DNA from: Parvibaculaceae bacterium Mf 1.05b.01
Lineage (GTDB): Bacteria > Pseudomonadota > Alphaproteobacteria > Parvibaculales > Parvibaculaceae
Assembly (NCBI GenBank): GCA_000509225.1
Contig: BAOK01000002.1
Coordinates: forward strand, 252,496-316,495
Direction: 5' to 3'
Length of the DNA: 64,000 nt
Part shown: positions 55,420 to 57,879 of the stretch, piece after piece
Position numbering within the stretch: the stretch's first letter is position 1
How the letters are laid out: each line of letters begins with the position of its first letter
Notes under the pieces: model-generated
Database searches by the model: none
The model's input: the letters and a program-made list of their open reading frames with translations, nothing else
What the model was told of the DNA's origin: nothing
Program-made: the position numbers and the translations under genes

Positions 55420-56418
55420 TCAAATCTCAGCCGTGAAGGGGCGGGCTAGAAGGGAGGCAATGGCCTCATCCACCGTTTTGGTTCCCGAGACGATATCTGC
55501 GACAGCGTCACAGATCGGCAGGTCCAGGTGGCGCTTCTCCCCCATCGCCTTTACTGCCGCTGCGGTATGCACGCCTTCAGCGACGGAGTTGCGGTCGCCC
55601 ATAATCTCTTTCAGTGTTTTGCCTTCGCCAAGAGCCATGCCGAGTGACATGTTGCGGCTCTGCCTGCTTGAACAGGTAAGAATGAGATCGCCCAGACCTG
55701 ACAGGCCTGACAGGGTTTCAGGTCGTGCGCCCAAACGTTTGCCCAGCCGGACCATTTCTGCAAACCCGCGGGCGGTCAGCGCAGCACGCGCACTTTCGCC
55801 GAGCTTTTTCCCGTCAACAATGCCGCAGGCAATGGCCAGCACATTTTTGATCGCCCCGCCAATCTGGGTGCCGATCACATCGGACGTCCAATAGGGCCGG
55901 AAGGTGGGCGAGCCAATGGCATCCACCAGTGCGATGGCGGCTTCTTCTTCTGCGCAGGCGAGGGTGACCGCAGTTGGCAGGCCTCGCGCAACATCTGCGG
56001 CAAAACTCGGCCCGGACAGAATTGCCGGCACGGCGTCTGGCAAGGTCTCTTTCAGAACCTCGCTCATGAGTTTCCCGGAGTTCTGCTCGATGCCTTTTGC
56101 GCAAACGGCAACGAGGGATCCCCTTTGCAGCACGTCGTGGAGCTTGCTTGTCACCGCGCGCAAATGTTGCGCCGGGGGTACAAGAAGAAAAGCGTCCGTG
56201 CCGATCAGGTCTGCCATATCGCTTGTGGCTTTGATGGTCGCATCGAGGGGAATGCCTGAGAGATAGGTCTTATTCTCGTGGGTCTCGTTGATCTCCTCAG
56301 CAACTTCCGCCTCATGCACCCAGAGCTGAACGTCGCGACCGGCGCGCGCCGCCGCGGTCGCCAGTGCTGTGCCCCAGGCGCCGCCGCCGACTATTGCGAG
56401 AGTTCTGATTGTCGTCAT
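55420..56418 (-). CDS. gpsA: NAD(P)-dependent glycerol-3-phosphate dehydrogenase
   Basis: A 332-residue enzyme that makes glycerol-3-phosphate for phospholipid synthesis. IVGGGAWGTALATAAARAG is the N-terminal Rossmann motif, and the catalytic lysine region is GGAIKNVLAIACGI at about 187-200. LSGLSGLGDLILTCSSRQSRN is the family C-terminal signature. It supplies the substrate of PlsY, encoded upstream at 53483. It is divergent from a TetR gene. Confidence 0.96.
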   Translation of the reverse strand: MTTIRTLAIVGGGAWGTALATAAARAGRDVQLWVHEAEVAEEINETHENKTYLSGIPLDATIKATSDMADLIGTDAFLLVPPAQHLRAVTSKLHDVLQRGSLVAVCAKGIEQNSGKLMSEVLKETLPDAVPAILSGPSFAADVARGLPTAVTLACAEEEAAIALVDAIGSPTFRPYWTSDVIGTQIGGAIKNVLAIACGIVDGKKLGESARAALTARGFAEMVRLGKRLGARPETLSGLSGLGDLILTCSSRQSRNMSLGMALGEGKTLKEIMGDRNSVAEGVHTAAAVKAMGEKRHLDLPICDAVADIVSGTKTVDEAIASLLARPFTAEI

Positions 56419-56526: not shown

Positions 56527-57117
56527 ATGAGTGATGAGGTCTGCGAAAGAATCATAGAAGCTGCTGAAGAGCGTTTTACCCATTATGGCTATGGGAAGAC
56601 GACAATGGCAGAGCTTGCCCGGGACTGTGACATGTCATCGGGCAATCTCTACCGATTTTTTCCCAGCAAACTGGATATTGCTGAAGAAATCTGCCGCCGT
56701 GCCTCCATTCAAACGGCGGACGCGCTGACCGCTATTCTGGATAGTCCGGGCATGAGCGCCGCAGAACGGTTGAAGGAATTCCTGTTCCAGGACCTTCGTA
56801 CTACTTTTCACGCTTTGGAGAAGAACCACAGAATTGTGGAGATGGCGCAGCTGATTACCGCTGAAAGGCCTGAATTCCACAATGAAGGGCTGAAGCGGGA
56901 GCGGGACGTGTTGTCAGGCATACTCAGCATGGGCCGTGAGGCGGGCGAGTTTGAGGTTGCAGACCCTGATTTCACCGCTGAGATGATTCAGGCGGCAACC
57001 CTCAAATTCTCCTATCCGCAGCTTTTTTCCCGCCTCAGTCTCGAAAAACTTGAGCTGGAACTGGACGGGGTTTATCAGCTGATCGTGCGCGGATTGGCAC
57101 CGGCGAAGGTAGCCTGA
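56527..57117 (+). CDS. TetR family transcriptional regulator
   Basis: A 196-residue TetR protein. The helix-turn-helix spans about residues 20-60 (TTMAELARDCDMSSGNLYRFFPSKLDIAEEI). The start at 56527 (MSDEVCERII) has no clear Shine-Dalgarno site, and the frame extends 83 codons upstream over gpsA without TetR similarity. It is placed between gpsA and the small membrane-protein locus at 57381-57682, which it may regulate. It is not part of the usual gpsA-tsaD neighbourhood. Confidence 0.88.
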   Translation: MSDEVCERIIEAAEERFTHYGYGKTTMAELARDCDMSSGNLYRFFPSKLDIAEEICRRASIQTADALTAILDSPGMSAAERLKEFLFQDLRTTFHALEKNHRIVEMAQLITAERPEFHNEGLKRERDVLSGILSMGREAGEFEVADPDFTAEMIQAATLKFSYPQLFSRLSLEKLELELDGVYQLIVRGLAPAKVA

Positions 57118-57245: not shown

Positions 57246-57271
57246 AATGAATATTTTTGAAATCATTCATT
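57246..57271. promoter_or_regulatory. AATGAAT/ATTCATT inverted repeat upstream of the microprotein locus
   Basis: AATGAAT (57246-57252) and ATTCATT (57265-57271) are separated by 12 bases in an A/T-rich stretch. A weak promoter (TTGAAA at 57257-57262 and TTTAGG at 57280-57285) overlaps it, which fits repression of the microprotein genes. Upstream, at 57208-57226, GTGGCGAA is repeated in tandem. Confidence 0.4.
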
Positions 57272-57286
57272 GTTTTTCATTTAGGA

Positions 57287-57372
57287 CTCCTTACATGGTT
57301 GTCATCGACGCGCTCCTCCACTGCAGAAGGTGGGGGGCCGGAACCCTCAACCGGCCCAGAGCAAGGAGCGCG
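57287..57372 (+). ncRNA. Structured leader RNA with three-way junction hiding a ribosome binding site
   Basis: Seen pairings: P1 CGCGCTCC (57309-57316) with GGAGCGCG (57365-57372); P2 TCCAC (57317-57321) with GTGGG (57330-57334); P3 GGGCCGG (57335-57341) with CCGGCCC (57351-57357). There are no linker bases between P1, P2 and P3, and only AGAGCAA between P3 and P1. The P1 right arm contains the Shine-Dalgarno AAGGAG (57363-57368). An upstream CTCCTT (57287-57292) can pair with the same AAGGAG, which offers an alternative fold. The arrangement resembles a translational riboswitch or thermosensor. No known class is recognised. Confidence 0.55.
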
Positions 57373-57380
57373 AGACTTAA

Positions 57381-57527
57381 GTGAACTGGAACGAGCCCAT
57401 GAATGAAGCTGCACAAAGACAGACCCCCCTTCCTCCAGTATTGGGTCCTCTGGGCGTCAGCACCCTCGCACTGGCGCTCTATAGCGTTGGGCTCGTCATC
57501 CAGGTCGCTGGTCAATACTCCTTCTGA
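57381..57527 (+). CDS. Single-pass membrane microprotein 1
   Basis: A 48-residue frame from GTG 57381, or 42 residues from ATG 57399 (MNEAAQRQTP). One hydrophobic helix is clear: LGVSTLALALYSVGLVIQVA, ending QYSF. The Shine-Dalgarno AAGGAG is 12 bases from the GTG and lies in the P1 stem of the leader; GGA at 57388-57390 could serve the ATG. The frame lies outside the gpsA, TetR and tsaD genes and is followed by a second microprotein. I do not recognise a family. Codon use is not unlike that of the neighbours. Confidence 0.6.
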   Translation: MNWNEPMNEAAQRQTPLPPVLGPLGVSTLALALYSVGLVIQVAGQYSF

Positions 57528-57568: not shown

Positions 57569-57682
57569 ATGTTTGGCAACGGATTTTCAAACTTCCTCGA
57601 CCGTTTCAGCACAACAGCTGTGACAGTTGTTCTCACAGGTTACGGCGCTGTGCTGTTCGCGCAGGCAAGCAACCTTATCTAA
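57569..57682 (+). CDS. Single-pass membrane microprotein 2
   Basis: A 37-residue frame from ATG 57569 (MFGNGFSNFLDRF) with one hydrophobic segment, TTAVTVVLTGYGAVLFAQA. AGGTG lies six bases upstream. It follows microprotein 1 by 41 bp on the same strand and is followed by the palindromic repeat and a terminator, so the pair is probably one transcript. An amphipathic start before the helix is typical of small membrane-embedded regulators or subunits. Family unknown. Confidence 0.58.
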   Translation: MFGNGFSNFLDRFSTTAVTVVLTGYGAVLFAQASNLI

Positions 57683-57693
57683 CGATCCTTCGT

Positions 57694-57780
57694 CTAGAGC
57701 GCTTTCACAGCGCTCTAGCTTGTAGATTGGTCGCATTTCCGAACCGCGAAAGTAGTTACTTTCGCTGAAAATACTCCAGG
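57694..57780. repeat. Palindromic intergenic element, copy 2
   Basis: CTAGAGCGCT (57694-57703) and AGCGCTCTAG (57709-57718) form a perfect 10-bp stem over TTCAC. Then TCGCATTTCCG and a second hairpin GCGAAAGTA-GT-TACTTTCGC (57746-57765) lead to CTGAAAATACTCCAGG. Part order and anchor bases (CTCTAG, CGC-TTTCCG, CTG..A..CTC.A) match copy 1 at 14325-14425, while the hairpin sequences differ but keep pairing. Confidence 0.68.
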
Positions 57781-57844
57781 TTCCCTTTCCCCTCCCTAGG
57801 GGACCCGGACATTGCCCCAAGCGTCCCCCCGCTCAAGGCAACCT

Positions 57845-57879
57845 GAGACGCCGGACCCCCCTCCGGCGTCTCTTTTTTT
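57845..57879 (+). terminator. Strong intrinsic terminator
   Basis: GAGACGCCGG (57845-57854) and CCGGCGTCTC (57863-57872) form a perfect 10-bp stem over an 8-base loop, followed by seven T residues (57873-57879). It is oriented to end the plus-strand microprotein transcript, and lies 163 bp beyond the second stop. The minus-strand side lacks a T run. Confidence 0.85.

What the first reader, a model, noticed from the sequence alone, without database searches (positions are those of the whole stretch)
57287..57372. Compact three-way-junction leader that can hide a ribosome binding site
Three perfect or near-perfect helices join with no linker between P1-P2-P3 and only seven bases closing the junction. 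The P1 right arm contains AAGGAG of the downstream frame, and an upstream CTCCTT can compete for it. This is the design of a translational switch, and it matches no class I recognise.
Basis: partly seen in the sequence, partly recalled or inferred. Interest (0 to 1): 0.7.

Follow-up and report, generated by a model that had tools for sequence, protein, structure and literature searches.

The report
Structured leader of TetR-controlled small-protein operon
A strongly folded stretch at the start of a short bacterial message is real, but it looks like the structured head of a repressor-controlled operon that makes two tiny membrane-type proteins and ends in a regulatory-RNA-like tail, rather than a new molecule-sensing switch.

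Summary
The fold is real: P1 57309-57317/57364-57372, P2 57318-57322/57329-57333, P3 57335-57341/57351-57357 (MFE -38.5; 1 of 200 shuffles as stable). The three-way junction is confined to one clade: a covariance model finds it in 5 of 40 family genomes, all of one genus. P1 is kept in 5 of 5, P2 is absent in 2 of 5, P3 is partly kept. The proposed competitor CTCCTT lies between a conserved -35 and -10, so it is probably not transcribed. Freeing the P1 3' arm costs 12 kcal/mol, and the ATG conserved in relatives lies 30 nt further on.

What recurs is the whole unit: TetR gene, palindrome over the -35, a leader folded above the shuffle mean (24 of 25 representatives), small hydrophobic ORFs, and a C-rich-loop hairpin RNA ending in a terminator (24 of 25 loci). 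I read the leader as a constitutive 5'-end cap, perhaps damping translation in this clade, not a ligand switch. The 3' RNA resembles ar14/'cuckoo' RNAs but is below Rfam's cut-off and lacks their exact loop motif. The locus is more interesting than the leader.

The parts
56527..57117 (+). TetR-family regulator gene (TetR_N + TetR_C_27), probable repressor of the operon
   Evidence: Pfam TetR_N 9.2e-13 and TetR_C_27 2.1e-12; homologue upstream on the same strand in 32 of 33 loci. Start codon by inspection; a longer GTG start at 56278 is possible.
57246..57271 (+). Operator-like palindrome AATGAAT-N12-ATTCATT overlapping the -35
   Evidence: Sequence; pattern for palindrome plus -35 matches once in each of 29 of 40 family genomes, 0 matches of the reversed control pattern, and in 8 of the remaining 11 with up to 3 mismatches. 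Binding not tested.
57270..57297 (+). Promoter: -35 TTGTTT 57270-57275, 16-nt spacer, -10 TACATG 57292-57297; predicted start about 57304 (57302-57306)
   Evidence: Conserved spacing in 37 distinct loci, TA in 34 against 7.6 expected. TSS is a prediction; the simple sigma-70 scan does not report this promoter.
57287..57292 (+).
   Evidence: Position relative to the conserved promoter
57309..57317 (+). P1 5' arm
57318..57333 (+). P2 hairpin (5 bp); absent in 2 of 5 genus relatives that keep P1
57335..57357 (+). P3 hairpin (7 bp) with C-rich loop AACCCUCAA, invariant in the five P1-bearing genomes
57364..57372 (+). P1 3' arm, overlapping the SD-like AAGGAG (57363-57368)
57381..57398 (+). GTG and five further codons in frame before the ATG, or the RBS of the ATG; identical in 5 of 5 genus genomes
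   Evidence: 18 of 18 positions invariant against 16 of 24 just after the ATG
57399..57527 (+). ORF1, 42 aa, one hydrophobic stretch; no Pfam or NCBIfam match
   Evidence: hydropathy
57569..57682 (+). ORF2, 37 aa, one hydrophobic stretch; no Pfam or NCBIfam match
   Evidence: invariant positions 31, 34, 18 of 37 at codon positions 1, 2, 3 over five genomes, i.e. protein-coding constraint
57775..57879 (+). Three-hairpin 3' RNA resembling ar14/cuckoo RNAs: hairpin I 57775-57809 (loop with CCCCUCCC), hairpin II 57812-57841, terminator hairpin 57845-57872 plus U tail
   Evidence: Sub-threshold Rfam ar14, 37.9 bits against 58.8, E 2.2e-5 in a 751-base search; similar fold in 24 of 25 loci; terminator; coordinates; two-sided changes in the alignment

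Best explanation
The feature is the 5' untranslated leader (about 57304-57380, reaching the RBS before 57399) of a short operon. Shown by comparison: a TetR-type gene, a palindrome over the -35, a promoter at fixed spacing, a leader more folded than chance, small hydrophobic ORFs and a hairpin RNA with a terminator recur together. Inferred: TetR blocks the promoter until its unknown ligand releases it. The transcript then starts a few bases before P1, so P1 with P3 (and in some species P2) forms at once as a compact cap at the 5' end. The cap mainly shields that end from pyrophosphate removal and RNase E entry, in the manner of the ompA-type 5' stem-loop. In this clade the same helix also covers an SD-like AAGGRG before a GTG and may lower initiation there constitutively. 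It is not a ligand- or temperature-driven switch. The 3' RNA is probably released from, or shared with, the same transcript.
For: Leader MFE z mean -1.51 over 25 representatives (23 of the family, 2 outside), 24 of 25 below the shuffle mean, against -0.47 (18 of 25) and -0.26 (12 of 25) for equally long stretches downstream in the same loci. First paired base 0-5 nt from the predicted TSS in 36 of 37 MFE folds (no chance control for this count). In 13 distinct Parvibaculum-like leaders a helix starts at the predicted first base, with two-sided changes at 3 of 9 pairs (C-G to G-C, A-U to G-C, G-C to A-U) while loop length varies, which argues for RNA pairing rather than a protein-bound DNA palindrome. 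P1 is kept 9 of 9 in 5 of 5 genus relatives. Promoter. TetR upstream in 32 of 33. Precedent for 5' stem-loops that stabilise mRNA: passages of PMC7509114.
Against: No transcript or decay data. Per-locus significance is modest: the longest 5' helix beats mononucleotide shuffles at p<0.05 in 10 of 26 loci, and the 5'-pairing measure is weak (mean z 0.53). In the Parvibaculum-like helix pair 1 is unpaired in 7 of 13 and pair 4 in 4 of 13. Shapes differ widely; L006, L025 and L075 have little excess structure. The sequences are related, so combined statistics overstate significance. The retained AGGRG and the weak ATG SD in this clade, and the high SD pairing in L001 and seven other representatives, fit a translational role at least as well as a stability role there.
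Confidence: 0.5

Rival explanations
1. RBS lock in this clade: translation starts at GTG 57381, whose SD AAGGAG is held in P1; a trans factor, a helicase, the transcript's own C-rich 3' RNA or ribosome loading controls access. (The odds given here are not exclusive of one another.)
For: GTG and an AGGRG SD (-5.6 to -7.5 kcal/mol) are kept in 5 of 5 P1-bearing genomes, while the ATG SD is -3.3; GTG-to-ATG 18 of 18 nt invariant. In L001 the ATG SD region is also more paired than with shuffled leaders (0.83 against 0.56, 0 of 60 as high). Leaders of L009 and L036 pair their SD with a CUCC stretch.
Against: SD-to-GTG spacing is long (12 nt, by sequence). P1 is very stable and opening it costs 12.1 kcal/mol. 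The ATG is the start conserved in relatives (GAGCCCATG/GAGCCATG). AAGGAG itself is AGGGG in 4 of 5. Over 25 representatives SD pairing equals that of shuffled leaders (0.56 against 0.57).
Confidence: 0.25
2. Chance: G+C-rich, non-functional folding in a short leader, conserved only because the genomes are close.
For: Two-sided changes are few: 0 pairs in P1-P3 of L001-L004. P2 is lost in 2 of 5 and the fold is missing in 2 of 7 genus members. Control (a) is uninformative.
Against: 24 of 25 representative leaders fold better than their shuffle mean while downstream controls do so less; two-sided changes in the Parvibaculum-like helix; P1 stays 9 of 9 paired despite changes.
Confidence: 0.17
3. 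A new ligand-sensing riboswitch or RNA thermometer.
For: Compact junction, invariant P3 loop in five genomes, no Rfam class.
Against: The competitor is outside the predicted transcript; the junction is not conserved (P2 absent in 2 of 5); the model is found only once per genome, at this operon, in one clade; a TetR is already present as the probable ligand sensor.
Confidence: 0.05
4. The leader is itself an anti-SD (cuckoo-like) RNA element: C-rich loops at both ends of the transcript act on Shine-Dalgarno sequences in trans.
For: An unpaired CCCUC/CUCCC-type 5-mer in 7 of 24 leaders against 1.6 expected (0 of 200 shuffles as high); the P3 loop AACCCUCAA is invariant in the five P1-bearing genomes.
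Against: 17 of 24 leaders lack it unpaired; having the motif anywhere is only 11 against 7.2 expected (8 of 200 shuffles as high); 3 of the 7 are one clade; the canonical CCUCCUCCC is absent from the window's leader.
Confidence: 0.08

Closest known systems
5'-terminal stabilising stem-loops (ompA type; also A. baumannii recA, H. pylori vacA)
   Same: Helix at or near the first transcribed base, upstream of the start; precedent for mRNA stabilisation (passages of PMC7509114; the ompA stem-loop detail is recalled)
   Different: Here more elaborate and variable in shape; no decay data; in the window's clade the helix also covers an SD-like sequence
ccaF1-CcsR1-4 operon of Rhodobacter sphaeroides / CIN1-type loci
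   Same: Small-protein gene followed by sRNAs before a Rho-independent terminator, in one transcript (passages of PMC10253847)
   Different: No DUF1127 match here but small hydrophobic proteins; TetR/palindrome in place of an RpoHI/RpoHII promoter; structured 5' leader
ar14 / NfeR1 / cuckoo RNAs
   Same: Three hairpins with C-rich loops, the last one the terminator
   Different: Below Rfam cut-off (37.9 against 58.8 bits); window loops CCCCUCCC, CCCCCC, CCCCCC, not CCUCCUCCC; close behind an ORF in most relatives, with no sigma-70-like promoter reported
Translational riboswitches / RNA thermometers that mask the SD
   Same: SD-like sequence paired in a leader helix
   Different: No comparable transcribed alternative helix found, junction not conserved, no ligand or temperature evidence

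Membership tests
Riboswitch (SD-masking) | Conserved ligand-binding core across homologues | tested here: not met
   P2 and hence the junction absent in 2 of 5 P1-bearing relatives; model found in 5 of 40 family genomes only (the search scores 132 candidates a genome after a first look)
Riboswitch (SD-masking) | Alternative helix in the transcript that frees the SD | tested here: not met
   Proposed competitor upstream of the predicted TSS; best structure with 57364-57371 unpaired is 12.1 kcal/mol worse
Riboswitch (SD-masking) | Ligand-dependent change | not testable with these tools
   needs in-line probing or a reporter
5' stabilising stem-loop | Helix at or within a few bases of the 5' end | tested here: inconclusive
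   First paired base 0-5 nt from the predicted TSS in 36 of 37 MFE folds, but the TSS is predicted only and short leaders pair easily
5' stabilising stem-loop | Longer half-life with the helix | not testable with these tools
   needs decay measurement
ar14 / cuckoo RNA (3' RNA) | Three hairpins | tested here: met
   MFE folds, hairpins counted by eye
ar14 / cuckoo RNA (3' RNA) | Each hairpin with the loop motif CCUCCUCCC (definition from a passage of PMC10746234) | tested here: not met
   Window loops carry CCCCUCCC, CCCCCC and CCCCCC; L025 has the exact motif in one hairpin
ar14 / cuckoo RNA (3' RNA) | Rfam RF02344 above gathering score | tested here: not met
   37.9 against 58.8 bits; L001-L006 not listed in the 63-kb search and the window copy not listed in the genome search; the same stretches also match RF02837 anti-hemB below cut-off, better than ar14 in L010 and L023; sub-cut-off ar14 hits occur in 3 of 14 control genomes
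CIN1 locus (DUF1127 + CcsR) | DUF1127 protein upstream | tested here: not met
   No Pfam or NCBIfam match for either ORF of the window; ORFs of other loci not scanned
TetR-family single-target regulator | TetR_N domain | tested here: met
TetR-family single-target regulator | A dedicated operator that the protein binds | tested here: inconclusive
   One palindrome-plus-minus-35 match in each of 29 matching family genomes; binding needs EMSA, and sites away from such a -35 were not sought

The most novel reading that the evidence does not exclude
A previously undescribed alphaproteobacterial operon type: a TetR-family sensor drives one transcript with a structured 5' leader, one or two single-helix micro-proteins and a three-hairpin anti-Shine-Dalgarno (cuckoo-like) RNA. 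The C-rich RNA, by binding SD sequences including those of its own message, and the leader helix, by hiding the SD, jointly set the dose of the micro-proteins and repress other mRNAs when the TetR ligand appears.
Probability: 0.25. Interest if true: 0.7.

Novelty: new variant of a known kind. Interest (0 to 1): 0.42.

Why it matters
If the reading holds, the leader by itself is an ordinary structured 5' UTR. The unit it belongs to joins a TetR-type regulator, hydrophobic micro-proteins without a family name and an anti-SD-type RNA in what looks like one transcript. That would extend the small-protein/cuckoo-RNA arrangement known from Rhodobacter (DUF1127, RpoH-driven) to different proteins and a ligand-type regulator, and it gives a compact locus in which signal input, small proteins and riboregulation can be tested together.

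Tried and rejected
Rfam at gathering threshold: nothing in the window. Pfam and NCBIfam for the two small ORFs: nothing. The first MAFFT alignment mixed strands because the loci were not oriented and was discarded. MAFFT alignments A2 and A4 misplace the L005 P1 arm, A4 also used L002 coordinates one base off, and A3 does not align the right arms; pair counts for L005 and for the Parvibaculum-like set therefore come from scripts that place the arms by pairing and lean towards the structure. The class-wide operator scan used a wrong spacer (N6 instead of N7; it misses the window itself) and supports nothing. One search translated ORF2 one base out of register; the right start is 57569. The 5'-pairing measure and the longest-helix test are weak per locus. 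An idea that the cap keeps the RBS free was dropped: SD pairing equals that of shuffled leaders. Considered and rejected: the stem arms as a second protein-binding DNA palindrome (arm spacing varies with two-sided changes); an attenuator terminator in the leader (the scan reports only the one at 57845-57872); a switch by extending P2 into the P1 arm (possible by eye, but P2 is absent in 2 of 5).

Rows dropped before counts: of the 31 distinct loci, L017 and L063 (cut by contig ends); 8 loci were added, giving 37. L011 and L012 had no match but their genomes came back as L078 and L076; L024 was not followed. One search used 33 of these 37, one search used 25, searches used 25, one search used 24. 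Paper searches: 10 of 6,967 listed; 10 of 18; 11 of 11; 12 of 368; 12 of 640; Parvibaculum with sRNA: 0. Background on CcsR, cuckoo and NfeR1 was seen only as passages; PMC12218461 was seen as passages and not used; the cuckoo-family paper is not held.

Full report
Observation. The stretch 57287-57372 folds as described: P1 (57309-57317 with 57364-57372), P2 (5 bp) and P3 (7 bp), MFE -38.5 kcal/mol, z -2.66, 1 of 200 dinucleotide shuffles at least as good. No Rfam family covers it at gathering threshold or, on the + strand, at E up to 5.

Where the RNA starts. A blastn-type search of 98 genomes (26 with a match) showed that outside the closest genus members the conserved part is upstream of the fold, around TGAATATTTTTGAAATCATTCATTGTTTTTC. 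Over 37 distinct loci (35 of the family, 2 outside; L017 and L063 dropped as cut) TTGTTT (36 of 37) is followed after 16-17 nt (35 of 37) by a hexamer starting TA (34 of 37). The hexamer was picked as the best of four spacers; the same picking on shuffled sequence gives TA in 7.6 of 37. Read as -35 and -10, this puts the start at 57302-57306. The proposed competing CTCCTT at 57287-57292 is then promoter spacer. The TSS is a prediction; a generic sigma-70 scan does not report the promoter.

Regulator and operator. The palindrome AATGAAT-N12-ATTCATT (57246-57271) overlaps the -35. A pattern for it plus the -35 matches exactly once in each of 29 of 40 family genomes, with 0 matches to the reversed pattern, and in 8 of the other 11 with up to 3 mismatches. 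A TetR-family protein (TetR_N, TetR_C_27) lies upstream on the same strand in 32 of 33 loci tested, 109 to 796 bases away (L028 has no hit in the DNA fetched). That TetR binds this site is inference.

Conservation of the fold. A covariance model built from four genus members finds the fold in 5 of 40 family genomes, all in the window's genus, one copy each; it misses 2 of 7 genus members and 33 of 33 others. P1 is paired 9 of 9 in all five; P3 7, 7, 7, 5 and 6 of 7; P2 is absent in two of the five (L005). Changes in P1 are one-sided, and no pair in L001-L004 changes on both sides. L005 has two compensatory P3 pairs and one G x G mismatch. So the three-way junction is a lineage elaboration and covariation there is thin.

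The more general feature. Leaders are folded more than expected: mean z -1.51 over 25 representatives (23 family, 2 outside), 24 of 25 below the shuffle mean; a re-run gives -1.56 against -0.47 (18 of 25 below) and -0.26 (12 of 25) for same-length stretches downstream. In 13 distinct Parvibaculum-like leaders a helix starts at the predicted first base, with two-sided changes at three of nine pairs and variable loop length; pair 1 is unpaired in 7 of 13 and pair 4 in 4 of 13 (arms placed by best pairing). Per-locus tests are weaker: a long 5' helix beats mononucleotide shuffles at p<0.05 in 10 of 26, and the 5'-pairing measure averages z 0.53. The sequences are related, so combined scores are not probabilities.

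Start codon and SD. In 20 other loci tested the ATG homologous to 57399 has a good SD (-5.6 to -9.3 kcal/mol, ending 5-7 nt upstream). In the five P1-bearing genomes this SD is weak (-3.3), and an in-frame GTG 18 nt upstream has a better SD (-5.6 to -7.5), buried in P1 with a long 12-nt spacing. The 18 nt between the two starts are identical in all five (18 of 18, against 16 of 24 after the ATG), which fits either an RBS or an N-terminal extension. A direct test of SD hiding is negative for the class: mean pairing of the ATG SD is 0.56 against 0.57 when the leader above it is shuffled, over 0.7 in 8 of 25. For L001 it is 0.83 against 0.56 (0 of 60 shuffles as high) and for L009 0.92 against 0.65. 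An RBS lock in some lineages, including this one, therefore stays open (0.25), but with the P1 3' arm open the best fold is 12.1 kcal/mol worse, and I found no transcribed competitor of comparable strength.

Downstream. ORF1 is 33-42 aa in 33 of 37 loci (52-73 aa in four), with a hydrophobic 17-residue stretch in 35 of 37 and Y-x6-[QH] in 33 of 37; ORF2 is 37-42 aa in 27 of 27 loci examined, hydrophobic in 27 and with Y-x6-[QH] in 25. Neither window ORF matches Pfam or NCBIfam. No membrane-helix predictor was run. ORF2 shows coding constraint. L021 and L025, outside the family, have one small ORF.

The 3' RNA. After the last ORF, 24 of 25 loci examined (not L021, which has no T-run) carry a hairpin RNA ending in a U tract, three hairpins as a rule and four in L025 by eye; z ranges from -2.3 to -9.5, and an unpaired anti-SD-type 5-mer occurs in 24 of 24 against 12.1 expected. 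In a 12-sequence alignment 12 of 17 consensus pairs show two-sided changes, 7 in the terminator stem and 5 in hairpin I, where up to 4 sequences also break a pair. Rfam ar14 matches the window copy below cut-off (37.9 against 58.8 bits, E 2.2e-5 in 751 bases). In a 63-kb search ar14 is listed at E up to 1 for 9 of 20 loci but not for L001-L006, and anti-hemB (RF02837) matches the same stretches, better in L010 and L023. The genome search misses the window copy, and sub-cut-off hits also occur in 3 of 14 control genomes. So this is a resemblance, not membership: ar14 RNAs are described as three hairpins each with CCUCCUCCC (passage of PMC10746234), while the window's loops are CCCCUCCC, CCCCCC and CCCCCC. 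No sigma-70-like promoter is reported between the leader and the hairpins in the window or L002, but that scan also misses the leader's own promoter, so a separate promoter is not excluded. The nearest described arrangement is ccaF1-CcsR1-4 in Rhodobacter, a DUF1127 gene co-transcribed with CcsR RNAs from an RpoHI/RpoHII promoter (passages of PMC10253847).

Mechanism. Best supported: TetR-controlled transcription, a constitutive structural cap at the 5' end of the message, translation of one or two micro-proteins, and a 3' RNA in the same transcript. Shown: the co-occurrence, the promoter spacing, the excess folding. Inferred: repression, stability role, co-transcription and release of the 3' RNA. 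5' stem-loops that stabilise bacterial mRNAs are established (passages of PMC7509114). A ligand switch is unlikely (0.05).

Novelty. Searches of the held open-access library (listings, mostly capped, and some passages) showed no description of this locus; no held paper contains both Parvibaculum and sRNA as whole words. Subscription papers and the cuckoo-family paper could not be read. I rate the locus a new variant of a known kind and the leader itself as near-ordinary.

Noticed in passing
window 57775-57879: Three-hairpin, C-rich-loop RNA at the 3' end of the same unit, resembling ar14/cuckoo RNAs but below Rfam cut-off; a similar RNA in 24 of 25 related loci examined.
   Followed up: partly
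window 57399-57527 and 57569-57682: Two small hydrophobic proteins (42 and 37 aa) with no Pfam or NCBIfam name, both with Y-x6-Q at the end of the hydrophobic stretch, kept in 33 of 37 and 25 of 27 loci as Y-x6-[QH].
   Followed up: partly
L088 (window genome contig C2:162520-162645, minus strand): Another RNA elsewhere in the window's genome with two hairpins whose loops carry CCUCCUCCC-type anti-SD motifs (36.2 bits to ar14, below cut-off), closer to the canonical cuckoo loops.
   Followed up: partly
window 57683-57774: The window copy has about 80 extra bases with two inverted repeats between ORF2 and the 3' RNA that L002-L005 lack.
   Followed up: no
L025, after its single small ORF: A relative outside the family has four successive hairpins with CUCCC-type loops after one small ORF, one with the exact CCUCCUCCC motif.
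   Followed up: partly
L009, L036 leaders: A CUCC stretch in the leader pairs with the message's own Shine-Dalgarno sequence (SD paired 0.92 and 0.81).
   Followed up: partly
L080 1712-2162: Sub-threshold Rfam match to the cspA thermoregulator (35.3 against 78 bits).
   Followed up: no
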